Below, piece by piece: positions 516 through 61,357 of a DNA stretch of 64,000 bases. Source of the DNA: Plumapathes pennacea (Eukaryota > Cnidaria > Anthozoa > Antipatharia > Myriopathidae). Within the stretch, counting starts at the first letter, position 1, and every line of letters begins with the position of its first letter. The notes under the pieces are model-generated. The model did no database searches. It saw only the letters and a program-made list of their open reading frames with translations, and was not told where the DNA came from. Location of the stretch: NCBI GenBank assembly GCA_964036295.1, contig OZ038471.1:10806184-10870183 (forward strand). The letters are read 5' to 3'. The translations under genes were made by a program, and so were the position numbers.

Positions 516-610
516 GATGCATGTTTCTTTCGACGGGTGTCAGTGGTATTTAGGTCAGGGGATGAGTCATTTGAAGACATTCTGGTAAAACATTCCTGAG
601 GGATTGGAAC
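516..610 (-). CDS. Post-ankyrin basic, Ser/Thr-rich exon
   Basis: 95 nt, phase 0 in (acceptor TTTCGCAG) and phase 2 out (donor GTAAGT). It encodes VPIPQECFTRMSSNDSSPDL followed by a short tail with the basic cluster RRKKH. It has no counterpart after blocks 1 and 2, where an SH3 exon follows instead. It may therefore mark the true C-terminal region of the protein. No RING-type cysteine pairs are present. Confidence 0.65.
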
Positions 611-3600
611 CTGCGAAACAAAAATACCCACGTCAGCCATATGTCCACCTTGTTGTAATAAAACAACACAATAATAAGTTGGAGTGTCTCAAACCCAAAA
701 AAACTCTTATCAATGAAATCGATTGTATATCAAGTAAATAGGTGACTCGTCGAATAAACCAGTTATAGTTAAAAAAAAAAAACACGTCAGTAGTTTTGAT
801 TATTTATATTACATTTAAAACTTATAGAAGAAAAAATACAAAATATTTGATAAATCGGAAACTCAAAAAATCGGAAAGATTTAATCACTCGAGAAACTCG
901 GAATTCCGAGGTTGACGTCGTGTAATTAACATATTCGAAATGTTTACACTCACAGACAAGCCATTCAAATTTAGAAATATACACTTTACACACAATCGAT
1001 TTCAGGGAAAAATATTGGAGTTATGGCTACGTTAATGCTAAACAAATATATGTACAGTAGTTCTTTTATCATTAGTCAAAAGCGGCTGCTCTTTCAGTTG
1101 CACTATGATTGTGTAAGAACAAGTACAAGAAGCTAGTTAGTAGAGGCTTTGTTACCACCATAATTATTTTGTTGTTATTATCAAACTAAAATTTGAGCAT
1201 AGCTTCTTTCCAGGGAAGCACTCTTACCAGTTGAGCTTCCTGGAGCGTTGCTCCTCTTTCTAACAGCAAGTCAGCCATGGCTTCAAACTTCTTGGTCATT
1301 GCCAGTTGCAGGGGAGTTTCATTTGCGTCAGTCAGGGCATCAATTTTGACTGTCTCCTGGAAAATACATTTGTCATCAAAAGCGAAACCAAGGGGGGAGG
1401 GATGCAGAGAAAAACGAACCTCTGGCAACTATCTAGAAGTTATTTAATCACCCATGCTTCGCCTATCCTGCAAGTTAATCGATTGATCAATACATGTATC
1501 AATTTATCTGTTTTATCCACCTTTTACATGATATTGACTGGCACGACTAGATAGATTATAACTCACCGTTTGTAAAAGAAGTTGAACAACTTCGCGCCTG
1601 TTTGATAATACAGCTAAATGAAGCGCAGTTAACCCACTGCTATTTGGCTCATTTACGTTCGAGGGACACCGCTCTATCAATTTCCTCAAGGCGCTGTAAA
1701 GCAGATGACGGAGATTAATAAAAATAGAATAGATTACTGTTTAAATCAATACCAATGTCTCATCCTCCTTCGCTTTTCTGAAATTAGAAGATACGTAATA
1801 GAGTTACCGCTTGAACGAAGGACGGCAATGCGTAAATAAACAAATACTTGTATATCACATGTGATGAATATGTTTCTGTTATTTTGTTTGTTTGTTTGAT
1901 AGAGGTCCTATAAAATCTAGCTACTACAGTTGTCAACAAAGAATTTAAAGCGGCTTTGGATCTGTGTTTACACCATACAGAGCCTTCACATTAATGTTAA
2001 TGTTTAACATGTAATCAATATAATTATACAATTCAAAGCAATTGATTTCTTGTTTTATTAAATACAATCAAAGCAGCAAGGCAGCTGTAAGCTCGCGAAT
2101 TTGTAAAAAGTACTTTTGCGGGAGTGGGTACTTAATAGAACTGCCTCAAGGCCACATCATAAAAATTGCTCAATTTTAGGTATGTGGAAGTTCGCATCCG
2201 TTTCCGTGGGCCTCCACTTTTACTGAACCGCGTATTCGATTTAGTCTCAGTTTTGAAAACCCTCATTTACAAGGCAGCAGAGGGTGAAACTTATAAAACT
2301 TAGATGCTCGAATTAGGAGAATTCAAAATTCTTCACCGAGTGCCAAATCTTTGAACCGGAAGGAGACCTTCCGGAGTCGCACTGAAAAAAGTATATCCGT
2401 GACTTCATTACTCATGTCATGCACAGCTTATGTTCAACATCTACATATTCATCAAAGGCCATGATACTCCAGCCTGGGCTGCATTCATACTAAATACGTG
2501 CTTAAAGAAAACACGCCTTTCTTCTTTTGGCTGAGTTTCAAGTCGAATAAGTTTAAGTGAAATCTGATAACTTGTTGACATTACTTGCGGTTTTGGTTAA
2601 ATTCATTTTCGAATTCTTCTTCCAGTCCCCTACAGCATTTTTCATTGCTGGCGAAAACTATGCGAAGCAAAGCAAACTATAATCAAACGATAGAAATATT
2701 TGGACAAGCTGAAGTCGCTCAGGGCTGTCAGTGGTCACGGGTCTTTCAACTTTGACTTGTCAAACAACCGAGAATTTACCAAAACCTGTGTGATAATGGT
2801 TCTGAAGTGCAACAAATCTACTGGCAATTCAGGAATACAATGATAAAAATCAAAATAACTCCAGAAAACGTCTTCCCATCTCTTCGTTTCTTCATGCGTA
2901 TTCGCTGATGCCCAAATTTCAAAGGCAATTGTTGACACAGCATGACGGACTGACTGACTGACGCAGTCTTGCTGCAACAAGGTAGGACGCTTAAAAATGC
3001 CACCGCAAAAACTACTTCGACGATCGCGTTCTCGATTTTGTTGCGTTGTCGGTAATATCGATACTGCCCAAATTGGGAAGAGAACGACTTCCATATTTGA
3101 AATCCACTGTTGACAGCACTGGGACATATTCCATTGGACTGGATCGCATGAAGCTTCGCTTTTCACCACTTCGTGGTGAACGCAAGCTTAAAAATGGTTT
3201 TTGCAGTGTGGCCAAGTGGTTAGGGCGCTGGACTTGAAATCCGGAGATCCCGGGTTCAAGTCCCGCTCTGACCATTAGCTGGATTTGCAACAGGGTAGCC
3301 CTGAGTTCAAATCCTCGGCCACACTATGTAAATAGCCAACTGGTTAGCCTCCGACCAATTGGGATTCTTGACGAATTTGTGTTCAGTTTTTAATATTTCG
3401 TTTCTGCATTTCAAGTCTCCCCAATTAGCACGGCAGTGCTAAATACATTGAGACTTAAATAAAGTGATTTATTTATTTTTTATTTTTTCCTTTTTGCAAC
3501 TCTGACCCGCTGGATTAATCCCAAAACATCTGGCAGTTTTGTAATTACAAATGGATACTTTTTATACTTGATGTATCTTTAGTTTGTTTGTAACCGTCGG

Positions 3601-48600: not shown

Positions 48601-51600
48601 ACAATTTAAGCACAAAAGCCATATTCTCTCACAAGTAATTTGAATTCTTGGTGAAATTAACATACTATCTTTCCTCATTTTTTCAATTAGTATTCTAAAT
48701 CTGTCTGACGGTATCTATGTCTGTTGTATGTATGTTTATAAAATAAAAGTTATACAAATTTTTGGACTGCTCGATTTTAGTGAAGTTCCCGGTTCTTCAT
48801 TTGACCCGAGTTTATGAGAAAACGAGAAATTATAAGTATACGTACGTACATACGTATGTATGTATGCGTGTGTATAAGTGTGTGTAGTATTTTACAACTT
48901 ATTATATACACCTTGGCTTGATTCCGCAAGACTGTCTTCGTTCCTCTCGTCTACTAATTCCAGTAGAGAGGGAGAGAACCAGAAATAATTATCGAGTTCT
49001 TTAATGTAGCATGTGATGCGCCCGTCGAAAGAAATATCGATGACTGTTCCAACTTTATCTACAGTCTGAAAAAGAAAAGTTAGAATTAAATGTGAAATAC
49101 ATAGCATAGCGTATGGAAGCTGTGTCTAGTTATTGTGTTAATGCTGTAGCTGTTGAGTCAGAAAAAGACGTAAAGATCGGACGCAAACATTTTATCGTGC
49201 TTGTGAAATGAAAGATTGACTGAAATGAACATATAATTATTCTGTGTAGTTACAAATATAGTTTTCTAAAAAGGTATGCATACCGTTCACAGTTGGCTTG
49301 GGTTTACTGCGAATACAGTGGAACCGTGCTATCGCGATTTCCCGCTATCTCGAAATATTGATCGCTTCGCTTGAGAGTTCGGGATAGTGGGGTTCTACGG
49401 TATCAATTTTTACTTGTGTGAGGTTTTATGCAGAAATGATACCTCAATATCGATATTTCACAGAGATACACTTACCAGTTGCACTGTAGGCGTTACATGT
49501 AACATTCGTGCTCTTTGCGATGTCATGCACACTCGATCACCAATCTTAAACAGTTTTCTCTGCAGCGAAAAATGAAATATAGGCAAATAGGAAATAAAGT
49601 ATTTTTTATGCAAATTAAAACGTAAATTTATCCCCGACCTCCGCGGTAGTATCATGTTGTTTGGAGACTTTAAGCAAGTAGCCATCTCGAAATTTAATGT
49701 TCGTCAGTCATGGTACAACCTCCAGGCGAGGTTACCAAGCATCCAAGTATAATTCATTAGGCAACAAGCGAAAGAGAACCGACAGATTAATTTTATATTA
49801 TATATTACATTATGCAGATACCAGGCCAAGCAATTCGACCGACGGCTATAAATGATCCAGATAATATGCCAATGCATTGGAGGCAAGCTCGCTAGCTGTA
49901 AAAGGAGTAAAACAATTTGCGTCGACTGGAGCTGACCTGATCACAATCCAGGCGCCAACATTGTGTTAGAACTCCGATACTTCTTCAGAAAGGACAAGCA
50001 AAATACATTCGGTGGAAATTGAACAATCACTGTGGCAAATTTTACTGTTTGATCGTTCACAAGGTGATTCAAGTTTTGAAAAGATCGCCGCGGGTGCTCA
50101 ATGCAATGGAGAATGGAATTTTCGAGCTATATGAGGATTGCTCTATATTTTGAAATCACTGAAGAATAACGTAGTCGACAATGTTTGGAGTTTTGTTTCA
50201 TTTGCTGGAAAAGAAACACTACGACTTTCAGGAACCGGTAAGTCTTTAATGCATACAGTTGATGACAGTGGATGTTAATTGCAGACGTCTTTATTGTATT
50301 TTAGCAGTCGCCGTATTTTTTGTAGTTTAATGCCCCGGGACTGTGATGAAGGCAAAGTAGGAATGTAGTGTGAGAAAACTTAAAAGAGGAATCACTCTGC
50401 ACTACACGTAGTTTGAACTATACCAGACTCTATGCGACAAATAAATTACAGGTTGGTTTTAAGAGTTAAATACAGCAAGTCTTGGAGTTGCTGACACCCG
50501 GCAAAGCTTGCCACTAAGTTTGTACGGTCAAAACCTCGGGTGATATTTTCTCCGTACAGACCTCACGCTCGGTCAATAAGAAGTGTGTACGGACCGCAAA
50601 ATCAGTTTGCACACGTGGATCGCAAATGATTACTCGAAAAGTTGCTTAACATTTGCCATAAAAGGCCCAGAAGTGCAATGAAAAGTTTAAACGTTCCGGA
50701 TACTTACTGTTAAGTTATGATGATCGGGGAAAGCTTACAATCTGGGAAAATGATCATAACAAAGAAGGAAAATATCCAAGGAAAAGTTTGCTTGTGACCT
50801 CAGGCCGTCATTGACAACAAGTGCTGAGGACTTATGGATAGGGTTTTTCCACCCTTGTGTTAAAACTCGCACACTTGCCAGGAAGAAAGTGGAAAGTGAA
50901 CAATCACCGTGAACACTTCTGACTAAAACCGTCCAAAAATGTTTTGCAGACGTGCTTGCTAGTCATGGCGCACTGTGAAGACTGCAAATATTGTTTTCAC
51001 AACGCACGATAACTCTATATTTCGAGATCACTGACTGAGACAAAGACGTTGAGGATGTTTAGTTTGCTGGAAGAAGCCCAAACCGAATCCACGAGAAAGC
51101 AGGAAAATTAATCGGTGAGTTTTGAATAATATAACTTTCAACATCAATGTGTCCGTCCCAGTGTGTGATGAAATGATTTCCTTTTAGTGTCGTTTGGCCT
51201 TCTTCATTCTTGTATGTGTAAGAACTAATTCAAAAGAATAAAACAATGCTCAGTTACTAAAACAATTTCTCCTGAAATAAGATAAGACTGCAATTTTTTT
51301 AAAGCTTTAGGGCTGAGTGAGCAAGAAACCACTCACGGGCGAGTTCGGCAATGAATAAAGTTGACTGTGTCGTCCTTTGACACACTATCTGCTAATTCAT
51401 TCCACTCAGAACAATAGGCCATAGGATTTATTTAGGCAGTTGGTTCGATGGACGCTTCTCTTCTTTCAAGATTTTCAAATCAGTTGAATTGTAAGCTGTT
51501 AACTGAATTCGTTGTGTAAACAAACGTGCGTAAATTCATGCCTGATTGATGTTGTTGAATCGTTTGCCGAAAGATGTAAAGCCATATAATAAATATCTTA

Positions 51601-54600
51601 TTAACCTCGTTTGCTTGGTCTGTACCATAAGTTATAGATCCTCGTTTATTTTTGTCCCCTTATGGCCCGGGCACGAAGCGCGCTTGGGCCATAAGGCGAC
51701 AAAAAAACTCGGTCCATAACTAACGGTATGAACCGTGCACTTGGTTAATAAGATATATATATATACAAAATTACAATCTAAGCTAATACGATAGCTATTA
51801 CATATAAAATGTAAAACATTAATGTGTTAAAACAGACTGTAGGGTACTTTGCTTAAAGTGCCTATAAACCTTCAGACGTTACGTTTTTATATGAAAGTAG
51901 GAAGTGATCTAAGCAACTTATACTCAAAGAAACTCCGTTCCGAAGCGTTCTTATACTTTTTTCACGCTGTTGAATTCAGAATTCCGAAATCTTGACCGAG
52001 CGACATGGGAGACTGGGTCTGTGACGTCAGAGAATGGACCGGCATCGCTTTGGCGTCTCTTTGCCTTAGTTGTTTTTTCCCTTGGTTACGTTTTTCTCGA
52101 CAACACATCTATGAGGCATAATTCTCACCTCGCCAACTGCAAAATCTGTGTGAAAGTTTTGTTTGACAAGAAACGAGTCCCTCCTCTGACGTCATAACCC
52201 AGGCTCTCGATCGAAAAACTTTGCGCGGTCAGATTCAAAATGGCGGTCAAAATCGCATGTTTGCCGGGCGGAAAAATATATAAAAACGCTTTGGAGCGGA
52301 GTTTCTTTGGCCATAAGTTGTTTAGATTACTTCCTACTTTCATATAAAAACGTAACGTCTGAAGGTTTATAGGCACTTTAAGCGTAGCTGTTGCATAATT
52401 TACAGTAGCCGTTTTCGACGGATGTAATCTTTTCTTCTTATGGCATTTTTTGAGCTTAGGGTGGGTATGTTTCTTTCTGTGGTCAATAGTTTTGACCGTA
52501 AGTATGTTATTGAATGTTTTCTGTATGTTACGGTGTTGAACCAGGGCGTTCTGAAGTCTGTGCTTCTGAGGTTGTTGATTCGCTAGTTGGAAGGAAGTTG
52601 ATTCGCTAGTAAATAAGTCTTTCGATGTAGGTTGGTGCTAGGTTATGCTTGACTTTGAACATTAAAATTAGTGTCCTGTAGTATTCTGTTCACTGTAGTC
52701 CTGTAGTCTTCTCTTCTGTTCATTTTTGTAATCTTCTACCACGTTGTTTTCAGTTGCAAATCGGTCTCGCGCGTGTAATCAGTAAATCGACTCTTTGTCT
52801 TCAGTTTGTCGGAAAATAAAGAAAATGGAAGGCTGGCTATTAAACTTCTGTTGTATATACTAGAACAATTAATCTCCTCAGTGTTGGTGAATAGCAGTGG
52901 CTATTTACCTTGCCAAAGCGACTCTGATAAACGTTTGAAATATTTCAATTTGAAGGAGACGGAGGTTTGGACCAAAAACCCCCCACCCCGCCCTGTGCTC
53001 GACCAGCTTTTGAATAAATGTACCTTGTAAGTATAATAAAGCATATATTTACCTTTCCCGTCGGACTAAACGTAAGCACAGACATTTCGGTTGTCATTTG
53101 CATTGCGCTCGTAAGTGATGTATCGGTGCCTCTCTGAAGGATTGGAAGCACCTTAGGACTTGGACGAGAGGTAGCCAAATCTGTTGCACTTTTTCCACTG
53201 CTGTCTTGCGCCTTAATATCACACAGCCCCTTTTGATAAAAAAAAAACAGTAGTTATGTTTTATCTCAGTCACCTATTTCTGAACATGGTATAATCCAAA
53301 CGTTCCTCTTTCTTAAAGTTATTGCTCGTGACTGCGGTGAGCTTAAAATGGCAAACTTTTTTTTTTCTGGGTCGAGAATCAGCACACAGTTGTTGATTCA
53401 CAATGTCACATATGCGATGACCAAATAAATTAAGTAAGATGACTAAGTAAATTAACTTCGCGAACAACTTGAAATGTGAGCTATTAAATTGTTCACTACT
53501 TGTGGGAGTGGAAAAGTGGATTCAAAAAAAACTTCTAACGTTCAGAACTTTTTTTATCTTTTAATATTATTTAGAGGAGCGGTAAAGAAACTTACTTTTT
53601 AGAAGAAAAGTAGGGGTCACCAGAAGTTTAAGAGAGTTATTTTGACAAATAGTATCCAAGCACCATGTTTTGTTAACATCTCCACTGTGCGTACACGACG
53701 TTGCATTGCGTCAACCATTCTTTATATGCGAGCAAAAACTGTGCGCATAAACAATCCGCGCGAACATCCTTAAGCCAAAATCGCTCCCTAAAATTCCAAC
53801 TTATCTGTGCATGTTCCACAGAGCCAAACAGTGATAAGTTCGAATGGGACTCAAAAAAGTAACGTACGAGGAAACATTGAAATCAAGTAATACATTCAAT
53901 TGCCCACATGTCACGTTGCTCACGAAATCACCTTATGTCATCACATATAACGTGACAATTTGAACCAATCACCGTGTGCTGATTTTTGACCCAGAAAAAC
54001 TAAAACAAAAATCTTTCAATCTTTCTTTTTCAGCTTGTGGCTACGCTCCAAGAGCAATTATTTGTAGTTTTTAAAGCAATAGAAAACTAATGTCATTAAA
54101 TATGATTTTAATGATTACCATCGGTATCAATCAGCATATATACTGAATTTGATTGAAAGGCTTCGTGGCATGAAGAACCTAGAGCATATCGTAAAGCTCT
54201 TTTTATTTCGAGCTTTTAGAAGTTCCTGTTAAATTTTGATGTTCTCTAAAGAATTACGAAAGTCAGGTTGTTATTTCATTGCAATTTTGGCGCCCACATA
54301 AAATTTCGCCTAAAAACCCTATAGAGCCACCTTAATTCAGAAAAAAGGAACCGAAATTATCCTTCCTTTTTTTCTTTTCTTCTTGACCTCCGATCAACAA
54401 CAAAAAGAGCAGATATTTGTTGTTAGATTTCCATGCTGGAAGTGGTCCCTGTCCCAGCAAGCTCATTGCATAAAAATAGAAGCTTCTCGCATATTCAAGG
54501 GAATATTAATTATTATTAAAAAATGGACCACGGTTACAGGATTTGTAGGATTTTGATTGGTTCCTCGGACACGGGTTATCAGCTCATAACTTATCTGTGG

Positions 54601-55816: not shown

Positions 55817-55892
<76 letters not shown>

Positions 55893-58800
55893 GTAATTGT
55901 TTTGCTACTGAGAATATATCAAACGTGTCAGTACCTCATTGTTGAAGTCTCTCGCGGTTTCAAAGTGCTCAAAAGCACCCATACAATGTACAACTATCCT
56001 CCCTCATGCTGTGTTCGGGTTGTGTATTGTGCTTGCTACTCAGTTCATGGTGGCAATTTCTGGTCCCTCCATTCGTTACCAAAAGTTAGTTAGACCATTA
56101 CATTTCTAGTTTTCCAGTTCTAAATCCACTTCATCAACTCAGTACAGATGCGTAAGCCTTTGTTTTGGTTCAAACGTATCTCAAATATGTTGATTTCAAA
56201 AAGTATTGGATTTCGTGTTAAGCATTTGCGCAATGCTATTGCACATTGAAAAGCGAGAGAGCATCCTATTGCTACCCTCGCACAGCTCGGGAATAATAAA
56301 GACGTGATTAAAAGGTAATTTATTGATACCAACAAGTAATTGTGCCTGGGTTGACGTTAGTTCATTAACATATTCGAAGTATAAAACCTTTATAAATTGT
56401 CTCAAACCAAGAAATATTTCAATAGTAAACTACTTCATTGATGTATAAATCGATTTTAAGGAACACTAAATTTGAGGTTATAGAAACTTTATTATCAGAT
56501 TGTAAAAGAGTAAAAGACAGAAACAGAAAAAAAAAAACGAAAAAAAATGACTAAAGGACAAAAACAAAGGAGGAAAGCTATATAACGAGAAGATAAATAA
56601 ACAAATTGTGCCAACTATACCGTTTCCAAGAGCAGTTCTGTAGTTTCGACGTCGTCATTTAGAACTGCAAGGTGCAGTGGAGTCATTCCATTTGTGGCCG
56701 GAATGCGTACAATATCAGGTTCATAGGCCACCACCATTCCCAAAGCTCTGCTTGCAATTAAAAACGGTGGATACTGCATGAATTATTTAATGTGATCCTA
56801 TCATAAACTAAAAGTATAAAATATACATTTTGCATCCTGTACTTTCGTCGAAGAATCGCACAAGATTATAAGTCCTTTTCATAATGAATAGGTATCGTAG
56901 TACTTACACTTTGAACCCATTCTTTATTGCCAAATGAAATGGATTTAGACCTTTATTATTGCACACGTGGAGGTTCACAGCTTCTGAGCTTAGCAGCAAG
57001 TTAACCATGGCGATGTCACCATTTCTGACGGCTTCGTGTAGGGGTGTGTCCCCCTTGACGTGCTGAAAAGATACATGCAGATCAAAAACTGCCCTCTTTT
57101 AATTAAATCAGACTTGCATAACAGCAAAGGAATGAGTGAAAGGATGAAAACTAAATAAAAGTAAAACTACAGCAGTACGATATTCTATATGTTATATGTT
57201 AGGATGGTAAACTCTACATGAGGTTCTTCAAACAAGAACTACAGCGTACTTTACCCCCCCCCCCCCCCCCCAAAAAAAAATACATTAGATTCAAACAATC
57301 GTCAGATTTAGAAAAAACATTTTGAATTAAGTAATATATGATGAAACTAGCTGAACTTGGGATTGCGACAGGGACCGATCGTCGACTTACACTATTGTAT
57401 TTCACATTGTGTTAAATTAAAAATTCAAAGTGAGACAATTTTCCCGATACAAATCCTTCGTACTTTTTGGCACTTGCTAGCTCAGTGCTTTACTACTAAA
57501 AGAAATCATTGACGGTACGTTTTATAGGTAGGCTGCATTCTTTTGTCACCAAGAACTTTTTCTACTCTGTTGTCGAGTAAAATAGATCCTAAGACTGTTC
57601 AACGATGAATACATGGAATATTTTTAAAAATACGGTATAGTTAGGAACCGTATTTAGGCCTACGCATCGCACATCAAATAACTCCAAGTGAACTTAGGTA
57701 TTCCCAACTGTTTTTGAAAACATAAAGCCATACACATTTTTTTAATGTCATGAACAAGACTGATGTATATTTATATGTAATAGGATTACATGCTGGACGA
57801 GGCCGCAGGCCGAGTCCAATTTAGCAGTCAGAGGAATTTTCGTATTCAATTATTTCCAAATAGGATAGCATGTACTCCTGTCATGTGTTAATTATATCGC
57901 ACACGACGAAATAAATATAGCAATTGCTCGACAGAATTGCACTTCTACACCCTGGCTTTTAGCACACTCGACAAGATTGCTCTTCTGCACGTCCTTCCTT
58001 TGAACTCGGCATATATTTTAGTCAGTACGCCGTCCAGTTCTTCAACGGGAATGTCCTCCAAGTCTCGTTCTTCTCCGCGTGCAAGTTTCACTCGTTGAAA
58101 AGGTTTAGCCTAGTTGACGTGCTTTTCTTGGTGTTTTTGTTTTGATTTTCTTCTCTCATCTTCTCCAAATCCCCTTCCGACATATTTGGAACCTGCTGGA
58201 ACTTCTTCACTAAATTACTCGTTAAACATCCCAAACTTCAAACTCTGCCATTTTTGTAAAATACTCATTTCGGCTTTGCTGCGTGTACACGTCAACATTG
58301 AACACAGACGTGCGCTGATTAGTTCAGTTTTCATTTTCATTGATTTCTAAGCATTTTCATTGGCTGAGTCCAACTGCCCCAATTATTCTCAAATTGGATA
58401 CGCAAGTTTTTCTGAGGAAAAAATGTTATGTAAAACTGTCCAAATTAATCCCAATTTGGATAATTTAAAAAATTAAGAATACAATGGTTGCTTGTATAGA
58501 ATTTCGATTTGTACAATATAATTAGTACGTTAGTTGTAAGTTTAAAGTAACGGAGTACCACAGGAATACATTATAAAGTTATGTATATCATTCAGGGTCA
58601 TTATTTCATCTATTCGTATGACTATGACCAAGCCTTGCATCTAGTGATTAAAGAGCAAAACTAACAAGTTACTCTTGAGATTGATTAGCAAATATACATA
58701 TATTCGTTAAATAGATCCATTGAACGGAACATGGCAGTTACAAATTGTGGTGTTAAATTGTGTAATTTGGTAATGTTTTATTACGTATACCTGCACGTTT

Positions 58801-58953
58801 ACGTTGCACCCTTTCTGAATAAGCACATTTGCACATTCGTGATTATGTCTTTCTACAGCTATGTGCAGTGGAGTAGTCATTGCAGAGTTTCTGTCGTCGT
58901 CAATTTTTGCACCACATGTCAGCAAAAAGCTGGCAGTCATAGCCTTGAAATCT
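516..58953 (-). CDS. Mind-bomb-like multi-module SH3/ankyrin gene (spliced, incomplete at 5' end)
   Basis: Minus-strand gene assembled from 23 exons listed separately, with a possible tiny terminal exon at 209-197. All introns are GT-AG and all phases join without a break, giving about 1,024 codons in this window. It contains two complete blocks of an SH3-like domain plus about eight ankyrin repeats, and the end of an earlier block. The SH3-like domain (motif F-x-x-GD-x-V with a second half beginning T-[LV]-D-[RK]-VG) resembles the last MIB/SH3_15 repeat of Mind bomb proteins, and ankyrin repeats follow it as in MIB. MIB proteins are cytoplasmic E3 ubiquitin ligases acting on Notch ligands, but the RING fingers and MIB/HERC2-ZZ domains that define ligase activity are not visible, so that function is not claimed. 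The 5' end lies beyond 58953 or off the window. Alternative reading: tandem paralogous genes whose end exons I missed; the phase-compatible junctions and lack of internal start or stop exons argue against that. Confidence 0.8.
1228..1356 (-). CDS. Block 3 exon: last ankyrin repeat
   Basis: 129 nt, phase 0 at both ends, donor GTAAGA. It encodes NETPLQLAMTKKFEAMADLL then LERGATLQEAQL. It occupies the place of the longer 177- and 189-nt exons of blocks 1 and 2 but lacks their linker. If the donor were skipped, the frame would stop at 1186. The in-frame exon at 610 supports splicing. Confidence 0.82.
1567..1693 (-). CDS. Block 3 exon: ankyrin repeats
   Basis: 127 nt, phase 2 in and phase 0 out, donor GTGAGT. 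It encodes GLTALHLAVLSNRREVVQLL ending LQT. Same length as the block 1 exon 56747-56621. Confidence 0.87.
1694..2730. other. Intronic sequence without recognised features
   Basis: AT-rich intron sequence downstream (in gene sense) of the fold-back region. I see no exon, RNA gene or clear repeat in it. Confidence 0.5.
2880..3170. repeat. Dispersed repeat related to 12340-12480
   Basis: Shares stretches such as TTGTTGACACAGCATGACG and an AAAACTACTT end with 12340-12480 in the same orientation. Open frames across it have no protein features I recognise. Ends are undefined. Confidence 0.5.
3207..3475 (+). mobile_element. tRNA-derived SINE
   Basis: The head has tRNA-like RNA polymerase III boxes (A box near TGGCCAAGTGG, B box GGTTCAAGTCC) and a tRNA-Ser-like anticodon loop. 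A second B-box-like segment (GAGTTCAAATCC) leads to GGCCACAC, which pairs with GTGTGGCC at the start. The body ends in a T-rich tail after GAGACTTAAATAAAGTG. The body recurs at 46189-46371, which identifies it as a mobile repeat and not a tRNA gene. Confidence 0.8.
4750..5244. mobile_element. Mariner-type MITE (family 2), interrupted
   Basis: TIRs begin CAATCAGTAACAAAAG and end with the inverse. The element matches 6908-7156 closely but contains an extra 236 bp (4857-5092) flanked by a 6-bp duplication GGCCTG. The interior has CCCCTCC/GGGGAGG stretches facing each other. Confidence 0.8.
4857..5092. mobile_element. 236-bp insertion inside a MITE with 6-bp target duplication
   Basis: GGCCTG at 4851-4856 and 5093-5098 brackets this segment. 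The related MITE at 6908-7156 has a single GGCCTG and no insert. This is a dated, nested insertion. No strong TIR is visible in the insert, so its class is unknown. Confidence 0.7.
5245..6907. other. Intronic sequence with a small hairpin
   Basis: Mostly featureless AT-rich intron. A short inverted repeat, CACGAGTAACC repeated twice at 5768-5788, faces its near-perfect complement at 5831-5851. Open frames here show no protein features. Confidence 0.5.
6908..7156. mobile_element. Mariner-type MITE (family 2)
   Basis: Uninterrupted copy of the element at 4750-5244, with TIRs CAATCAGTGACAAAAG and inverse. About 249 bp. It serves as the empty-site reference for the insertion in the other copy. 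Confidence 0.8.
7157..8452. other. Intronic sequence without recognised features
   Basis: I see no exon, RNA gene or clearly bounded repeat here. Confidence 0.5.
8453..10373. mobile_element. Long-TIR fold-back element
   Basis: The ends are mirror images (GCGTTGCCAGTGAGCTCAC at the left and its inverse at the right), and the inverted similarity continues for several hundred bases on each side. Shared landmarks include AAACTAAAATGGAAAGTAGGGAC, CAACCTTTAAGAAGCAA (inverse at left) and GAAAGCGAGGAATGTAACA. A mariner-type MITE is nested in the left arm (8810-9062). Related ends occur at 21113, 40228 and 43402. No transposase frame is recognisable. Confidence 0.7.
8810..9062. mobile_element. Mariner-type MITE (family 1)
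   Basis: TIRs CAATCCTGGCCAAAAGT and inverse, flanked by TA on both sides as expected for Tc1/mariner targets. The second copy is at 35955-36202 in the opposite internal orientation. The centre carries CCCCTCCCCCC and its complement, which could pair. Confidence 0.85.
10385..11130. repeat. Inverted partner of 9330-9850 in the fold-back family
   Basis: Reads as the reverse complement of 9330-9850 with moderate divergence, including landmarks such as the GTGTGCTGATTCGTAACCCAG end. Together with the 8453-10373 element it makes a composite of opposed arms. Confidence 0.65.
11131..12340. other. Intronic sequence without recognised features
   Basis: No exon or bounded repeat seen. The last part borders the dispersed repeat shared with 2880-3170. 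Confidence 0.45.
12735..12889 (-). CDS. Block 3 exon: ankyrin repeats
   Basis: 155 nt, phase 0 in and phase 2 out, consensus donor GTAAGT. It encodes GNTPMHYAINQEKDAIMLAI followed by GSNIFHEAVESLNN. Same length as block 1 exon 57062-56908. The next intron is about 11 kb and is filled mainly with fold-back and TIR elements. Confidence 0.87.
13455..13620 (-). CDS. Block 3 exon: ankyrin repeats (166 nt)
   Basis: 166 nt, phase 2 in and phase 0 out. It encodes a helix ending LLDHKADVDVN and then LTPLHYAVLSNNEEATKVLI. Same length and phase as exon 39799-39634, with clear residue similarity. Donor GTAACT. Confidence 0.87.
15350..16622 (+). mobile_element. Non-LTR retrotransposon, 5'-truncated (Jockey/CR1-like reverse transcriptase)
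   Basis: The plus-strand translation contains VPQGSVLGPLLFLIYMNDM and then FADDT, the reverse transcriptase B and C motifs, followed by L-N-x-x-K-T and the YLG and AAPNTWN motifs typical of the C-terminal part of these elements. At least two frame changes (near 15672 and 15965) break it. It starts mid-reverse-transcriptase, so it is 5'-truncated. It ends in a short CTATCTATCTC-type tail after the stop at 16329. It is antisense to the host gene, in the 3.2-kb intron before the 41-nt exon. Confidence 0.85.
16836..16876 (-). CDS. Block 3 micro-exon: ankyrin helix (41 nt)
   Basis: 41 nt, phase 0 in and phase 2 out, with a long polypyrimidine tract before the acceptor and a consensus donor GTAAGT. 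It encodes NEVGLFPLHLSAA and the first two bases of a Gln codon. It was found by predicting, from block 2, that a phase 0-to-2 exon must lie between 26378 and 13620. It joins in frame to both neighbours. It sits between introns of about 9.5 and 3.2 kb. Confidence 0.78.
16990..17700 (+). mobile_element. L1-like LINE, piece 1 (reverse transcriptase)
   Basis: Translation shows IKNWRPISLINVDTKIASKV, then an A-box region (TIDFEIAFNSLNH), the GVRQGDPLSSLLFIL motif and FADDM, the reverse transcriptase core of L1-type elements. There is a frameshift near 17290, and the left end lacks the endonuclease. The sequence breaks abruptly near 17700, just after FADDM, and LINE coding resumes near 20390. Confidence 0.85.
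17701..20389. mobile_element. Insertion 1 in the L1-like LINE: mixed repeats
   Basis: Foreign sequence between LINE pieces 1 and 2. It includes a poly-C tract followed by GGGGGAGGGTACTCCC (18176-18210), a repeat family also seen at 21220-21400 and 32110-32395, and the GTGTGCTGATTCGTAACCCAG end of the fold-back family near 20329-20349. Open frames inside it have no recognised domains. Confidence 0.6.
20390..21112 (+). mobile_element. L1-like LINE, piece 2 (post-reverse-transcriptase region)
   Basis: Shifted plus-strand frames encode the region after reverse transcriptase, with landmarks FAIPKFVYSSS, NKELYNFI, EHGGLKMLDIECMIKAQRII and LSPSQLFALMGVV. Several stops and frameshifts mark it as dead. 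It ends at the start of a fold-back-family element near 21113. Confidence 0.75.
21113..25139. mobile_element. Insertion 2 in the L1-like LINE: fold-back family plus 1.2-kb TIR/hairpin element
   Basis: Begins with the fold-back family end (GATGAGCTCG, GGGTCGAGACCAG), contains the GGGGGTACTC repeat (21220-21400), arms similar to 8453-11130, and the hairpin element starting at 23786. I see no host exon in this stretch. Confidence 0.6.
23786..25120. mobile_element. Hairpin-headed element, copy 1
   Basis: Starts with a 156-bp hairpin (23794-23949; CTTATTAACC facing GGTTAATAAG, with GGCCATAAGGCGAC arms inside). About 1.1 kb of sequence follows that recurs, reverse-complemented, at 50556-51755. The far end has GCGGTCCGTACAGTAAGTTATGG-type repeats that echo the hairpin. 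No coding potential recognised. Confidence 0.75.
25140..26090 (+). mobile_element. L1-like LINE, piece 3 (C-terminal region and 3' end)
   Basis: Translation includes LLDISKILYSKF, DKYPSLSVEWKKIYSLAFNV and the Cys/His motif YCTFCNNEEKSLEHFFF, the CCHC-like C-terminal motif of L1-type ORF2 proteins, then KTNPSLDVFKAKL and a stop near 25800. An A-rich tail lies near 26066-26090. Frameshifts occur near 25230 and 25490. Confidence 0.82.
26378..26485 (-). CDS. Block 3 exon: ankyrin repeat
   Basis: 108 nt, phase 0 at both ends, donor GTAAGA. It encodes a near-canonical repeat: GFTALHLACSSGLSTVVKIL followed by LDHGANSKLP. The intron that follows is about 9.5 kb and contains the split L1-like element. 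Confidence 0.88.
26796..27005. mobile_element. 210-bp MITE with 23-bp perfect TIRs
   Basis: 26796-26818 and 26983-27005 are perfect inverted copies (TTATTATATACATACTGAGA and three more bases). Internal sub-repeats GCGAACGACG... face each other. Intronic. Confidence 0.85.
27017..27153. repeat. Hairpin element adjacent to the 210-bp MITE
   Basis: CATGGAAAGTGC (27017-27028) faces GCACTTTCCATG (27142-27153). Inside, TATCATAAAAC faces GTTTTATGATA. It lies 11 bp after the preceding MITE. Confidence 0.7.
27203..27735. mobile_element. Harbinger-like MITE rich in GCAACATGTTGC motifs
   Basis: Ends read AGCCCTGGCTAAACGGATGCAAC and the approximate inverse GTTGCAGCCGTTTGGCAAGGTCTT, with TTA on both flanks, consistent with the 3-bp TWA target of PIF/Harbinger elements. 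The interior contains many palindromic GCAACATGTTGC units. Confidence 0.6.
27838..27968 (-). CDS. Block 3 exon: linker into ankyrin repeats
   Basis: 131 nt, phase 1 in and phase 0 out, donor GTGAGT. It encodes an acidic linker and a degenerate ankyrin helix pair (LTNIRKILQKKPEL). Counterpart of 45418-45285. Confidence 0.83.
28679..28853 (-). CDS. Block 3 exon: SH3-like domain, second half
   Basis: 175 nt, phase 0 in and phase 1 out. It begins TLDRVGKVSKVNKKGKVEVI, and the domain ends near YHPNALIFVS. A proline- and glutamate-containing tail follows. The 178-bp intron upstream splits the SH3-like domain at the same residue as in block 2 (before T-[LV]-D-[RK]-VG). Confidence 0.88.
29032..29166 (-). 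CDS. Block 3 exon: SH3-like domain, first half
   Basis: 135 nt, phase 0 at both ends. It contains FHMGDIVKVNHDLEVVSSLQ followed by W-x-x-A-M-E-K. This closely follows the pattern of the terminal SH3 repeat of MIB proteins (F-x-VGD-x-V, D-L-E, L-Q, W-x-x-x-M). Of the two SH3 copies seen, this is the less diverged. Confidence 0.88.
30031..30270. mobile_element. TIR element (GGCC-AATTTTTTAAA ends)
   Basis: GGGGCCAATTTTTTAAAT at the left faces GTTTAAAAAATCGGCCCG at the right. A partial further end (AAAAAATTGGCCCG) is at 38350-38364. Interior pieces GGTTTAGACC and AAACCAGGTCTAA are also opposed. Confidence 0.65.
30572..30760 (-). CDS. Block 2 exon: last ankyrin repeat and Ser-rich linker
   Basis: 189 nt, phase 0 at both ends. 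It begins GMCDIHARGCDNRTALAIAS, continues as a helix, then a Ser/Pro-rich linker (VPSLSSSNSPGKASMAE). Its donor GTAGGA is phase-compatible with the SH3 exon at 29166. The last-repeat-to-SH3 junction is therefore repeated just as between blocks 1 and 2. Confidence 0.85.
31748..32041. mobile_element. TIR element (ACTAGAAATACGATA ends)
   Basis: ACTAGAAATACGATA near 31749 faces TATCGTATTTCTAGT near 32041. The same end with its neighbouring GCAGATACCCCCTCGCTCT occurs at 46060-46099, and interior sequence (GATGGCGA, AAATTTCGAGATGG) recurs near 47460-47500 and 49655-49710. Confidence 0.6.
32110..32395. repeat. GGGGGTACTC-type repeat with short internal tandem units
   Basis: Shares a GTGTGCCGCC core and CAAAATATCTGATTTACTATAC-like units with 21220-21400. 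Units of the form TATACCCTATTT(C/A)AGACCTGA are repeated three to four times. It ends in a poly-C tract (about 32380-32394). Confidence 0.7.
32396..34180. other. AT-rich intronic sequence
   Basis: No exon, RNA gene or bounded repeat identified. A poly-G tract is at 33622-33634. A 78-codon minus-strand open frame at 34142-33906 shows no known motif and may belong to the Arg/Glu-rich element next to it. Confidence 0.45.
34388..34774 (-). pseudogene. Arg/Gln/Glu-rich coiled-coil ORF remnant (transposon-associated)
   Basis: 128 codons from ATG at 34774 to a TGA at 34388. They consist of imperfect R-x-x-RR-x-x-x-R-x-RR-x-x-ET-type repeats (for example RLQKRREQERLRRTRETSQQ). Coding-like sequence continues past the stop (RRHNETSGETARRLHAQNEA) and then shifts frame, ending at a GTAAGA splice-donor-like site near 34190. 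A related but shorter ORF is at 47356-47075. From memory such repeats occur in invertebrate transposon-linked proteins; the family is not identified. Confidence 0.55.
34851..35090. repeat. Short direct repeats before the Gypsy remnant
   Basis: TTCTGTTCCGATGTTTTACCCAGCAA-type unit occurs near 34934 and 34981. A GGTCGGT(C)CGTGAAATACAGACATTTCAA unit occurs near 34853 and 35029. Two tandem or duplicated units of about 45 and 175 bp spacing. Origin unclear. Confidence 0.6.
35140..37460 (+). mobile_element. Ty3/Gypsy LTR retrotransposon remnant
   Basis: In order on the plus strand: a zinc-knuckle fragment (CPAFGKTCMKCGK, near 35206), an aspartic-protease-like motif in which the usual D-T-G reads D-T-D (near 35276), the N-terminal part of reverse transcriptase (LRLCIDPMGLNKA, near 35802), an RNase H fragment (about 36360-36530), an integrase zinc-binding segment (36572-36760) and an integrase core fragment ending in a PQSNGL-E motif (near 37048). 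The reverse transcriptase catalytic motif is missing, and there are many stops and frameshifts. A mariner-type MITE is inserted at 35955-36202. No LTR pair was recognised. The element is dead. It lies antisense in the 7.3-kb intron after exon 38233-38101. Confidence 0.82.
35955..36202. mobile_element. Mariner-type MITE (family 1) inside the Gypsy remnant
   Basis: Same TIRs (CAATCCTGGCCAAAAGT) and TA flanks as 8810-9062, with the interior inverted relative to that copy. It interrupts the reverse transcriptase region, so it arrived after the Gypsy element. Confidence 0.85.
37497..37523. repeat. Poly-A tract
   Basis: About 25 consecutive A within the decayed 3' part of the Gypsy region. Confidence 0.9.
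38101..38233 (-). CDS. Block 2 exon: ankyrin repeats
   Basis: 133 nt, phase 2 in and phase 0 out. It encodes MMPLHLACLKRHSGVANILL followed by the DT end shared with the ET/QT ends of the block 1 and block 3 counterparts. Donor GTAAGT. The following intron (about 7.3 kb) holds the Gypsy remnant and an Arg/Glu-rich ORF remnant. Confidence 0.87.
38841..38986 (-). CDS. Block 2 exon: ankyrin repeats
   Basis: 146 nt, phase 0 in and phase 2 out, consensus donor GTAAGT. It encodes GSTALHEAVGADKNDIVKAL and then GLNAFHLAVLNGNE. It is equivalent to the 155-nt exons of blocks 1 and 3, and the GLN-FHLA core is also present in block 1. Confidence 0.87.
39634..39799 (-). CDS. Block 2 exon: ankyrin repeats (166 nt)
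   Basis: 166 nt, phase 2 in and phase 0 out, coding for 55 full residues including ATPLHLAVLCSNVATVNVLL. It is exactly the same length as the block 3 exon 13620-13455 and 3 nt longer than block 1 exon 58953-58791. It is a good anchor for aligning the three blocks. Confidence 0.87.
40051..40115 (-). CDS. Block 2 small exon: ankyrin helix
   Basis: 65 nt, phase 0 in and phase 2 out. It encodes a short stretch ending GLSPLHHAAIG. It supplies the first helix of the repeat completed by the 166-nt exon at 39799. The block 3 counterpart is reduced to 41 nt (16876-16836). Confidence 0.8.
40228..40390. repeat. Fragment of the fold-back family
   Basis: GACTGGCGTTGCCAGTGAGC end plus about 130 bp matching the start of the 8453-10373 element (AAACTAAAATGGAAAGTAGGGAC). 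It lies in the 1-kb intron between exons 41259-41143 and 40115-40051. Confidence 0.7.
41143..41259 (-). CDS. Block 2 exon: ankyrin repeat
   Basis: 117 nt, phase 0 at both ends. It encodes GLTGLHIASKVGAVGAVEVL and ends in the ankyrin turn GASIDAK. The donor is GTTTGT, off-consensus at +3 and +4, but no other site fits the frame. Counterpart: 26485-26378 (108 nt). Confidence 0.83.
41805..43402. mobile_element. Fold-back family copy with internal tandem duplication
   Basis: Begins GGGTCGAGAATCAGCACACGG and ends with the GAGCTCACTGGCAAGGCCAGTC family end. About 500 bp (41920-42440) is repeated in tandem at 42450-43080 with high similarity, including AAACAAATGTTTGATGGATACC and CTTTATGCTTTACTCTGTACATGACA. 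It is in the intron before exon 41259-41143. Confidence 0.75.
43489..43589. repeat. Palindrome with 41-bp perfect arms
   Basis: 43489-43529 and 43549-43589 are perfect inverse copies. The 19-bp centre itself contains TCGTC and GACGA. It directly abuts the TIR element at 43596. Confidence 0.9.
43596..44565. mobile_element. 970-bp TIR element
   Basis: TIRs of 23 bp: 43596-43618 (TTATTATACAACTCCCTTAG...) and its inverse at 44543-44565. Near the right end TACGGCTGTATCTTTTTTACG echoes the arm of the neighbouring palindrome, so the two are probably one family. No recognisable transposase; small open frames inside lack motifs. Confidence 0.75.
44952..45268. mobile_element. MITE with GAGC(G/C)G...TCGGATGACTGTCGAAA ends
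   Basis: Left end TAGAGCGGTTCTCGGATGAC and right end GTCATCCGAAAACGGCTCTA are mirror images, with TA at both borders. The interior is rich in AACCAAAAC/GGTTTTGG. Relatives at 60249-60475 (left end kept) and 62990-63229 (right end kept). It lies 16 bp from the splice-donor edge of exon 45418-45285. Confidence 0.85.
45285..45418 (-). CDS. Block 2 exon: linker into ankyrin repeats
   Basis: 134 nt, phase 1 in and phase 0 out. It encodes a polar linker and then a degenerate ankyrin helix pair (ITFFRAVSMCHKSSIRNILD). Its counterpart at 27968-27838 is 131 nt with the same phases. A TIR element (44952-45268) ends 16 bp downstream of the exon in the sense direction, leaving the donor GTAAAT intact. 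Confidence 0.8.
46102..46188 (+). repeat. 87-bp direct repeat, copy 1, flanking SINE fragment
   Basis: Starts TTGATTGGACTTTTACTTTA and ends GAAGTCAA. It is repeated at 46372-46457 with a single 1-nt length difference (GCAAATCC versus GCAATCC). Confidence 0.9.
46189..46371 (+). mobile_element. SINE fragment
   Basis: Matches the body of the SINE at 3207-3475 from GGTAGCCCTGAGTTCAAATC to the GAGACTTAAATA..GTGATTTATT tail. It lacks the tRNA-like head. It lies exactly between two copies of an 87/86-bp direct repeat. Confidence 0.85.
46372..46457 (+). repeat. 86-bp direct repeat, copy 2, flanking SINE fragment
   Basis: Second copy of the 46102-46188 segment. Together they look like a very long target-site duplication or a recombination scar. 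Confidence 0.9.
47075..47356 (-). pseudogene. Arg-rich coiled-coil ORF remnant, relative of 34774-34388
   Basis: 93 codons, ATG at 47356, with the repeat pattern RNRETIKQRQIRLEKRRQTC also seen in the ORF at 34774-34388 (ET-x-x-QR-x-x-x-LE-RRRQT). It ends soon after. It lies next to sequence shared with the ACTAGAAATACGATA TIR family (46060-46099 and 47460-47500), so it may be cargo of a larger member of that family. Confidence 0.5.
47580..48900. other. Intronic sequence without recognised features
   Basis: No exon or bounded repeat seen. A short TATG/TACG microsatellite-like stretch lies near 48838-48866. Confidence 0.45.
48912..49065 (-). CDS. Block 2 exon: SH3-like domain, second half
   Basis: 154 nt, phase 0 in and phase 1 out. 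It begins TVDKVGTVIDISFDGRITCY and contains WFSPSLLELV, matching the VG-x-V strand and the W/Y-F-x-P-x-x-L end of the MIB SH3 repeat. The donor is GTGTAT, weaker than most in this gene but required by phase for the next exon. It matches the 175-nt exon 28853-28679. Confidence 0.8.
49476..49559 (-). CDS. Block 2 exon: SH3-like domain, first half
   Basis: 84 nt (28 codons), phase 0 at both ends, consensus donor GTAAGT. It encodes RKLFKIGDRVCMTSQRARML and a short tail ending VQL. The F-K-I-G-D-R-V motif is the opening beta strand of MIB-type SH3 repeats. The domain is completed by the next exon. The block 3 counterpart (29166-29032) is longer because it carries extra N-terminal and loop residues. 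Confidence 0.82.
50556..51755. mobile_element. Hairpin-headed element, copy 2 (inverted)
   Basis: Reverse-complement relative of 23786-25120. It includes the hairpin at 51597-51752 (CTTATTAACC facing GGTTAATAAG) and matching landmarks such as GATCGCAAATGATTACTCGAAAAG (inverse in copy 1). Divergence is moderate, with small indels. Confidence 0.75.
51852..52382. mobile_element. 531-bp TIR element with 54-bp perfect TIRs
   Basis: 51852-51905 and 52329-52382 are perfect inverse copies (CTTAAAGTGCCTATAAACCT...). Beyond them the inner ~40 bp are imperfectly opposed (AAAGAAACTCCGTTCCGAAGCG facing CGCTTTGGAGCGGAGTTTCTTT). Intron between exons 53053 and 49559. Confidence 0.9.
53053..53229 (-). CDS. 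Block 1 exon: last ankyrin repeat and linker to SH3
   Basis: 177 nt, phase 0 at both ends. It opens with GLCDIKAQDSSGKSATDLA, a final ankyrin half-repeat, then a Ser/Thr-rich linker ending SPTGK. The block 2 counterpart begins GMCDIHARGCDNRTALAIA. Its donor is phase-compatible with the SH3 exon at 49559, which makes the join between blocks 1 and 2 possible. Confidence 0.83.
53330..54000. repeat. Fold-back family fragment
   Basis: GGGTCGAGAATCAGCACACAG at the left faces ACCGTGTGCTGATTTTTGACCC at the right, the same end motif as in the 41805-43402 and 9330-11080 copies. Confidence 0.65.
54590..54890. repeat. Imperfect inverted repeat (CATTCCAAAATGGCCGCC ends)
   Basis: ACCTCATTCCAAAATGGCCGCC near 54610 faces GGCGGCCATTTTGGAATAAGGT near 54860. 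GAGTCCAGCTACATGGAAACGAGG faces CCTCGTTTCTATGTAACTCGAC. It is probably a MITE. Confidence 0.65.
55585..55690. repeat. Small hairpin element (GCCGAATATGGAATGAT arms)
   Basis: AACAATTATTCTGCTCGGGCTTGCCGAATATGGAATGAT-like left arm (55585-55624) faces ATCATTCCATATTCGGCGCG...AATAATCGTT at the right. No coding content. Confidence 0.7.
55817..55893. repeat. (ATT)n microsatellite
   Basis: About 25 uninterrupted ATT/TTA units. Confidence 0.95.
56621..56747 (-). CDS. Block 1 exon: ankyrin repeats
   Basis: 127 nt, phase 2 in and phase 0 out. It encodes a repeat containing GMTPLHLAVLNDDVETTELL. Identical in length to the block 3 counterpart (1693-1567) and 6 nt shorter than the block 2 counterpart (38233-38101). 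Only 160 bp of intron separate it from the preceding exon. Confidence 0.87.
56908..57062 (-). CDS. Block 1 exon: ankyrin repeats
   Basis: 155 nt, phase 0 in and phase 2 out, with a consensus donor GTAAGT. It encodes GDTPLHEAVRNGDIAMVNLL and then a second half-repeat GLNPFHLAIKNGFK, completed in the next exon. It has the same length and phase as the exon at 12889-12735. Confidence 0.87.
57063..58790. other. Intronic sequence with poly-C tract
   Basis: No exon recognised. A poly-C run followed by poly-A is at 57255-57279. Confidence 0.5.
58791..58953 (-). CDS. Block 1 exon: ankyrin repeats (equivalent of the 166-nt exon)
   Basis: First visible exon, 163 nt, entered at phase 2 and left at phase 0 (donor CAG/GTATAC). 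It encodes an ankyrin helix pair with the signature TTPLHIAVERHNHECANVLI and ends in CNVNVQ. It aligns with the exons at 39799-39634 and 13620-13455, which share length, phase and the T-PLH-AV core. Its phase-2 entry requires a further upstream exon, which I could not find between 58954 and 64000. Confidence 0.85.
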
Positions 58954-61071: not shown

Positions 61072-61357
61072 ATGTCCGGCATTGCACATTATTGCAACTT
61101 TTGCCGGAACCACGGTGTTCCGACCCGTGTTTCCGCCCTCCATAGGGCAAATTGCCCTTGGAGGGCATGTGCATGCGAACTTTGCGAGCGGGTAAGACGC
61201 AGAAACGAGTACCGGCGGAATTTACACAGGAGTACAATATCTAACAGTACATCAGTTCCTTCATCTTCCGCCGGTGCAACAGCCGCTGATGTTCTCGCTG
61301 CTGCGAACTCAGCGGCCGGCCCCGCCTGCGCTACTTCAGCAGCCGCTGCAAGAGCCG
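61072..61357 (+). CDS. DM-domain gene exon 1 (DM zinc module)
   Basis: 286 nt including the proposed ATG. It encodes the eight-ligand DM zinc module, an Arg-rich segment and a Ser/Ala-rich tail. Donor GCCG/GTAAGT, leaving phase 1. The region just upstream (60970-61070) is locally rich in GC and CpG for this AT-rich window, as often seen at promoters. Confidence 0.82.

What the first reader, a model, noticed from the sequence alone, without database searches (positions are those of the whole stretch)
1228..58953. Tandem multiplication of a whole nine-exon SH3 + ankyrin module in a Mind-bomb-like gene
Two complete blocks and part of a third repeat the same series of exons in the same order with the same phases: SH3a, SH3b, linker, ankyrin, small, 166, 155/146, 127/133, last. 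Lengths per block are 1,188 nt (396 codons) and 1,167 nt (389 codons). Known MIB proteins have one such tail region (terminal SH3 repeat then ankyrin array). Here the phases allow block-to-block splicing (53053 to 49559, and 30572 to 29166), giving a beads-on-a-string protein of at least 1,000 residues with at least two SH3-like domains and more than 16 ankyrin repeats. I do not know of a described protein with this layout. It could be a large multivalent scaffold instead of, or as well as, a ligase.
Basis: partly seen in the sequence, partly recalled or inferred. Interest (0 to 1): 0.87.

Follow-up and report, generated by a model that had tools for sequence, protein, structure and literature searches.

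The report
Mind-bomb-like gene with tripled cassette
An animal gene, probably from a coral or sea-anemone relative, descends from the Mind bomb protein-tagging enzymes but carries three tandem copies of the family's SH3-plus-ankyrin cassette and shows no sign of the enzyme's catalytic RING end, so it may work as a many-armed binding scaffold rather than an enzyme.

Summary
The minus strand carries three tandem copies (A, B, C) of a MIB2-type exon series (SH3a, SH3b, linker, ank, 41-nt small, 166, 155, 127, last). B and C lie wholly inside the window. Most of A's first half lies just right of it, and MIB_HERC2-ZZ-MIB_HERC2 exons with an ATG lie further right. The gene spans about 98 kb.

A profile built only from other species' MIB proteins aligns to each block over nearly its full length (190, 169 and 188 bits; best of 200 shuffles 3.9). 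Neighbour L is an ordinary single-cassette MIB2 with RINGs. Neighbour R has an extra SH3 repeat after its ankyrins, then a RING. No RING was found for the window's gene.

Two-cassette MIB2-like proteins are already predicted in Acropora and Pocillopora, and their duplications look separate from this one. So this is a new variant of a known kind: three divergent cassettes and apparently no RING.

SH3 is firm only in C, weak in B and not recognised in A. One exon or boundary before block A is missing, and the 3' end is unknown. That all blocks form one transcript is inferred, not shown.

The parts
58791..58953 (-). Block A, exon '166' (163 nt), ankyrin
   Evidence: external profile hit, E 1.9e-7
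56908..57062 (-). Block A, exon '155', ankyrin
   Evidence: E 3.5e-11
56621..56747 (-). Block A, exon '127', ankyrin
   Evidence: E 2.5e-4
53053..53229 (-). Block A, 'last' exon; phase-0 donor facing block B
   Evidence: profile that includes this gene; not found by the external one
49476..49559 (-). Block B, SH3a exon (84 nt)
   Evidence: SH3_15 weak, 15.0 bits over both SH3 exons
48912..49065 (-). Block B, SH3b exon (154 nt)
   Evidence: E 0.97 only
45285..45418 (-). Block B, linker exon (134 nt)
   Evidence: (E 1.1 to block C's linker)
41143..41259 (-). Block B, ank exon (117 nt)
   Evidence: E 0.0058
40051..40091 (-). Block B, small exon (41 nt)
   Evidence: 41 nt also in L and R
39634..39799 (-). 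Block B, exon '166'
38841..38986 (-). Block B, exon '155' (146 nt)
38101..38233 (-). Block B, exon '127' (133 nt)
30572..30760 (-). Block B, 'last' exon; phase-0 donor facing block C
   Evidence: not found by the external profile
29032..29166 (-). Block C, SH3a exon (135 nt)
   Evidence: E 0.0023; SH3_15 43.5 bits over both SH3 exons
28679..28853 (-). Block C, SH3b exon (175 nt)
   Evidence: E 0.18
27838..27968 (-). Block C, linker exon (131 nt)
26378..26485 (-). Block C, ank exon (108 nt)
16836..16876 (-). Block C, small exon (41 nt)
   Evidence: chosen among 13 listed splice-bounded candidates by ankyrin pattern and length; 41 nt as in A, B, L, R; missed by the profiles
13455..13620 (-). Block C, exon '166'
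12735..12889 (-). Block C, exon '155'
1567..1693 (-). Block C, exon '127'
1228..1356 (-). Block C, 'last' exon (129 nt)
516..610 (-). Candidate next exon after block C: 95 nt, phase 0 in, phase 2 out, polar linker; no homology tested or seen

Best explanation
One gene on the minus strand, descended from a MIB2-type Mind bomb gene, has had its REP(SH3)-ankyrin cassette multiplied to three copies. Shown: the exon anatomy. The cassette is bounded by phase-0 introns on both sides, so whole copies add or drop out without shifting the frame, and the boundaries checked in the neighbouring single-cassette gene L (SH3a, ank, small, 155, 127; start of 166) sit at the same places. Shown: MIB_HERC2-ZZ-MIB_HERC2 exons with an ATG lie on the same strand about 35 kb right of the window. 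Inferred: all this is transcribed as one unit, giving a protein of about 1,400 residues or more with three separate ankyrin arrays of about eight repeats (my count by eye), and SH3-like repeats leading into the second and third. Inferred: with no recognisable RING it does not transfer ubiquitin itself. It would use the MIB-type head to bind the tails of membrane proteins and the three arrays to bind several partners at once. It would then act as a scaffold or competitor beside the RING-bearing MIB2 paralogues next to it, or work with them in one complex.
For: Stop-free chain of 26 exons (1,133 codons, 25 phase-matched junctions) from Ash3b to Clast, plus 206 codons of three head exons; three boundaries (both small exons of B and C, and Ash3b's donor) were chosen with phase as a criterion. 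Each block aligns over nearly the whole 234-position MIB ankyrin profile built without this locus (1-231, 7-232, 1-234). Block C aligns in one stretch (123-384) to the solved MIB1 chain 8v0e. MIB_HERC2 107.5 bits and ZZ 24.6 bits in the head. No RING on the minus strand, while L and R RINGs score 3.1e-21 and 5.9e-17 with the same profile. The R gene model shows ankyrin -> SH3 -> RING with the same phase-0 junction. Predicted Acropora proteins show ankyrin -> SH3 -> ankyrin. RING-independent function has precedent: Drosophila Mib2 needs MIB domains and ankyrins for muscle integrity, and ligase-dependent activity is said to contribute relatively little there (PMC5345843, abstract and section 19). 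MZM and REP bind separate boxes of Notch ligands (PMC11887331, passages).
Against: No transcript data. The 3' end beyond 516 is unknown, so a very divergent or split RING cannot be excluded. SH3a of block A was not found, and the junction from the 'mid' exon (73133) into block A is unresolved (phases do not match with the donor I used). The SH3 of B is below Pfam's cut-off and scores only 2.0 bits with a profile free of this locus; block A including Ash3b gave no SH3_15 match at E<=0.05. Introns are long and hold retroelement pieces. Block A pairs with R, not with B or C, in the tree.
Confidence: 0.52

Rival explanations
1. Separate tandem genes: A is a truncated MIB2 with its own head, and B and C are neighbouring copies that lost heads and RINGs but are transcribed on their own.
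For: The genome holds a spread MIB2-like family on this contig (18 of 28 MIB_HERC2 matches on C10). Block C's SH3a exon contains in-frame ATGs. In the tree A pairs with R (91/90) rather than with B or C.
Against: No head exon (MIB_HERC2, ZZ) or RING was found at the block boundaries. The gaps are only 3.5 and 1.4 kb, the boundary exons have AG/GT phase-0 splice sites, and in L, the single-cassette gene, the SH3a exon also starts at a phase-0 intron. Promoters were not scanned.
Confidence: 0.17
2. A decaying pseudogene of a once larger MIB2 gene, kept in frame by chance or recent death.
For: RING not found, block A SH3a missing, SH3 repeats degenerate, first MIB_HERC2 domain shortened against the coral proteins.
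Against: 1,339 codons over 29 exons (3 head exons plus the 26-exon chain) without a stop, with AG/GT boundaries. Ankyrin core positions kept. Long tree branches with an intact frame suggest fast but constrained change.
Confidence: 0.1
3. A working multi-cassette E3 ligase like the Acropora proteins, whose RING exons lie far downstream or are too divergent to see.
For: Of six Acropora and Pocillopora proteins examined, five have two full ankyrin units (the sixth, P0131, one and a partial) and four end in RINGs. The gene may continue past block C (candidate exon 610-516).
Against: RING profiles and a RING pattern found none on the minus strand to the end of the fetched DNA at -146000, through the stretch occupied by the opposite-strand gene L (the best downstream piece, E 0.47, is not a RING; one search covered the stretch down to -100000 only).
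Confidence: 0.2

Closest known systems
MIB2/MIB1 Mind bomb E3 ligases (canonical; gene L beside the window is one)
   Same: Head MIB_HERC2-ZZ-MIB_HERC2; REP plus one MIB-type ankyrin array; same intron places where checked; exon lengths equal or within a few codons except SH3a (84 and 135 nt here, 105 in L), the 41-nt small exon identical in A, B, C, L and R
   Different: One cassette and C-terminal RINGs in L; three divergent cassettes and no RING found here
Predicted two-cassette MIB2-like proteins of Acropora (P0124, P0126, P0127; 1,633-1,645 aa)
   Same: Head, then REP-REP-ankyrin-REP-ankyrin: a REP-ankyrin unit repeated after the first array
   Different: Two units not three; RING pair kept; the units group within Acropora in the tree, apart from A, B and C
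Predicted Pocillopora MIB2-like proteins (P0122, P0125; 1,307 and 1,452 aa)
   Same: Two ankyrin units after a MIB head; P0122 shows no RING
   Different: Second unit lacks its REP; P0125 keeps RINGs; duplication separate from this one in the tree
Actinia tenebrosa LOC116300724 (P0121; 1,995 aa), best hit of the whole model
   Same: Two copies of MIB parts in one predicted protein
   Different: The whole MIB2 including head and RINGs is doubled; possibly two genes fused in annotation
Gene R (window coordinates 99131-146305, plus strand), head to head with this gene
   Same: SH3 repeat following the ankyrin array at a phase-0 junction; ankyrin unit pairs with block A in the tree (91/90, flagged as a possible long-branch join)
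   Different: One ankyrin unit; ends in a RING

Membership tests
Mind bomb (MIB) E3 ubiquitin ligases | N-terminal MIB_HERC2-ZZ-MIB_HERC2 | tested here: met
   MIB_HERC2 107.5 bits in two stretches (cut-off 33.5), ZZ 24.6 (cut-off 21.4); exons right of the window
Mind bomb (MIB) E3 ubiquitin ligases | Two MIB/SH3_15 repeats between head and ankyrins | tested here: not met
   Only one weak SH3b-like exon (71169-70968) before block A's ankyrins, not recognised by the REP profiles or by Pfam
Mind bomb (MIB) E3 ubiquitin ligases | MIB-type ankyrin array | tested here: met
   Met three times: 190, 169, 188 bits against an external profile
Mind bomb (MIB) E3 ubiquitin ligases | C-terminal RING fingers | tested here: not met
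   None on the minus strand from 1228 to -146000; last RINGs of L and R found by the same profile; 3' end not defined
Mind bomb (MIB) E3 ubiquitin ligases | Ubiquitin transfer activity | not testable with these tools
   Needs a biochemical assay
Two-cassette coral MIB2-like proteins | REP-ankyrin unit repeated in one protein | tested here: inconclusive
   Met at exon-model level with three units; not shown on a transcript
Two-cassette coral MIB2-like proteins | Duplication shared by descent | tested here: not met
   The eight Acropora and Pocillopora units form one clade (100/100) without A, B or C; W_A, W_B, W_C and R lie on the other side of a weak branch (72/66); long branches make placement unsure

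The most novel reading that the evidence does not exclude
A natural, RING-less Mind bomb paralogue with three REP-ankyrin cassettes has left the ligase role and become a multivalent scaffold or competitor for MIB ligands. The cassette's symmetric phase-0 introns let anthozoan lineages multiply it repeatedly and independently, and could let splicing choose one, two or three cassettes.
Probability: 0.33. Interest if true: 0.66.

Novelty: new variant of a known kind. Interest (0 to 1): 0.5.

Why it matters
Mind bomb proteins activate Notch ligands and are usually treated as fixed four-part ligases. A paralogue that keeps the binding parts in triplicate and seems to drop the catalytic end would separate binding from ligation in nature, and would give a testable case of intron phase driving repeated cassette multiplication in a signalling gene. 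The surrounding MIB2-like family (three genes in 310 kb; at least 28 MIB_HERC2 matches in the genome) looks like an expansion worth describing. Nine paper searches listed no paper on such a layout or on a coral MIB2 expansion. Searches listed 15 of 50 and 10 of 75 matches, and only open-licence papers are held. One listed coral paper mentions MIB2 once (PMC4320547, listing only).

Tried and rejected
Chance or generic ankyrin similarity: rejected by profile scans and shuffles. Transposon origin of the repeats: the nucleotide repeat families in the window are dispersed elements that do not overlap the exons; no exon pair appeared as a DNA repeat there, so the blocks are alike only as protein (ankyrin units of A against B and C 37% and 34% identical). 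A fourth block or a RING downstream: searched with seeds, patterns and profiles, not found. One weak SH3-like piece at -5891 was not supported by the profiles. Homology search with the SH3 region of C alone: 386 candidates, none at E<=0.01. First homology search with B+C was swamped by generic ankyrin proteins. A, B and C as a clade without R is neither shown nor rejected (p-AU 0.065). Naming the species: not settled; a MIB1 comparison did not complete, and the C9 locus was only about 27-54% like six MIB1 proteins piece by piece, so 'anthozoan' rests on the best protein hits only. Cassette counts in the other MIB2-like genes of the genome: not done. PMC2770060 was seen in passages and not used. 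Structure prediction was not run: the spliced protein is not letter for letter in the DNA and the long coral proteins exceed the tool's size limit.

Full report
What is there. The window is G000:C10:10806184-10870183, in a 290 Mb genome of 24 contigs. Similarity among reading-frame pieces shows the repeated exons, and manual splicing gives 22 exons from 58953 to 1228, 985 codons, no stop, all with AG/GT boundaries. Exon phases are identical block to block: SH3a 0-0, SH3b 0-1, linker 1-0, ank 0-0, small 0-2, '166' 2-0, '155' 0-2, '127' 2-0, last 0-0. Three boundaries were picked with phase as one criterion: the small exons of B and C and the donor of Ash3b.

Outside the window. Flanking DNA was fetched. 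The gene continues to the right. The exons are linker 70368-70274, ank 69160-69053 and small 66739-66699, a weak SH3b exon 71169-70968, a 'mid' exon from 73133, and MIB_HERC2, ZZ and MIB_HERC2 exons at 98858-98648, 82669-82495 and 79478-79247, the first with an ATG. The chain from Ash3b to Clast has 26 exons and 25 phase-matched junctions. The three head exons splice in frame to 206 codons and lead into 'mid' at phase 0; with 55 codons of 'mid' the model has 1,394 codons. Two things stay open: block A's SH3a exon was not found, and the 3' edge of 'mid' that I used ends in phase 1 while Ash3b starts in phase 0, so at least one exon or boundary is missing there. Past block C there is a candidate exon 610-516 of 95 nt. 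From the ATG to that exon is about 98 kb.

Controls. I built ankyrin, REP and RING profiles only from other species' MIB proteins and scanned 17,726 reading-frame pieces of both strands of 310 kb. Ankyrin: 26 hits at E<=1, all in three MIB-type genes (this gene 14 of its 18 ankyrin exons, L 6, R 6). The four missed here are the last exons of A and B and the small exons of B and C. REP: 13 of 13 hits at E<=1 in those genes, three of them in this gene (E 0.0023, 0.18, 0.97). RING: L at 3.1e-21 and R at 5.9e-17; of the three weaker hits one is L's first RING exon and two are not RINGs; none belongs to this gene. With profiles that include this locus, 17 of the 18 ankyrin exons are found on the minus strand at E<=0.06 and nothing else before E 1.6, and no RING. 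On the spliced protein the external ankyrin profile aligns to A, B and C in single stretches at 190, 169 and 188 bits; 34 of 200 shuffles had any hit at E<=10, the best 3.9 bits. The external REP profile gives 31.7 bits in C and only 2.0 in B. Pfam SH3_15 gives 43.5 bits in C, 15.0 in B (below the cut-off of 24) and no match at E<=0.05 in head plus block A. More than one genuine SH3 domain is therefore a reading from exon position and phase; it is firm only for C.

Neighbours. Gene L (plus strand, left; extra DNA) has head, two REPs, one ankyrin unit and RINGs. Its linker exon was not found. The exons checked (SH3a, ank, small, 155, 127, start of 166) have the same boundaries, and the small exon is again 41 nt. 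I take it as the single-cassette control. Gene R (plus strand, right) starts head to head with this gene, with 272 bp between the ATGs. Its model has head, two REPs, one ankyrin unit, then a third SH3 repeat at the same phase-0 junction, then a RING exon. The genome search scored 28 MIB_HERC2 matches, a lower bound, 18 of them on C10.

Relatives. Of the seven best hits of the whole model six are cnidarian MIB-like proteins: Actinia P0121 (661 bits) and the coral proteins P0122 and P0124-P0127; the seventh, P0123, is a generic ankyrin protein (120 listed of 3,260 matches). Of ten proteins scanned for units, P0124, P0126 and P0127 (Acropora) have REP-REP-ankyrin-REP-ankyrin-RING-RING. P0125 and P0122 (Pocillopora) have two ankyrin units without a second REP, and P0122 shows no RING. 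P0121 is a whole MIB2 doubled. The other four (P0131 of Acropora, P0052, P0189, P0198) have one unit, though P0131's is partly repeated in its model. The coral and Actinia sequences are database gene predictions as far as their names show. In the tree of 19 ankyrin units, block A pairs with R (91/90), B joins them (87/82), C is a very long branch, and A, B, C and R are one side of a branch at 72/66. The eight Acropora and Pocillopora units form one clade (100/100), with the two Pocillopora units together and the six Acropora units together; the two Actinia units pair (100/100). A, B and C alone as a clade is neither shown nor rejected (p-AU 0.065). The tree tool flagged A with R as a join of long branches that may be false. 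Cassette multiplication therefore looks repeated: within the Acropora and Pocillopora lineages, and older or faster here.

How it may work. In canonical MIB1 the head (MZM) and REP bind two boxes of a Notch ligand's tail (PMC11887331, passages seen). In Drosophila Mib2 the ankyrins and MIB repeats carry the main muscle role while RING deletions are mild there (PMC5345843, abstract and section 19 seen). A protein with the head, three ankyrin arrays and no RING would be suited to binding several partners without tagging them. That is inference. The REP of C lacks the GHGxWN-like motif seen in the second REP of L and in the second and third REPs of R; the first REPs of L and R lack it too. So C's ligand may differ. 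Because B and C are phase 0 on both sides, whole cassettes could also be skipped by splicing without a frameshift; this is untested.

Verdict. One gene with three cassettes is the best reading. A RING-less scaffold is likely but open. The layout is a new variant of a known kind, since two-cassette coral proteins already sit in databases.

Noticed in passing
61063-61416 (+), inside the 66699-58953 intron of this gene: A DM-domain (DMRT-type) reading frame (34.6 bits, cut-off 27) on the opposite strand, so a DMRT-type regulator gene appears nested in the intron between block A's small and '166' exons.
   Followed up: partly
62032-62745 (+): Open frame next to the DM exon that looks to me like the rest of the same DMRT gene (recalled resemblance); Pfam gave only sub-threshold hits.
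   Followed up: partly
98858 (-) and 99131 (+), right of the window: Two MIB2-like genes start head to head with 272 bp between their ATGs, suggesting a shared bidirectional promoter.
   Followed up: no
15334-15672, 17189-17734 (+): Reverse-transcriptase pieces (RVT_1, 51.8 and 66.4 bits) inside introns of block C.
   Followed up: partly
36470-36757 (+): Integrase zinc-binding piece (Integrase_H2C2, 30.3 bits) between B127 and Blast.
   Followed up: partly
9300-10061 and 41779-43083: Dispersed repeat family in several copies at 67 to 97% identity, with near-tandem copies 521-637 bp apart around 42 kb.
   Followed up: no
-50466 to -44439 (+), left of the window: Very long open frames (1,279 and 829 codons) that look like a retroelement, in the gap between this gene's last found exon and gene L.
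   Followed up: no
contig C10 at about 4.80, 8.75-8.95, 9.97-10.13, 10.36, 10.63-10.67 and 10.99 Mb: Further MIB_HERC2 loci: a MIB2-like family spread along the contig, whose cassette numbers were not counted.
   Followed up: no
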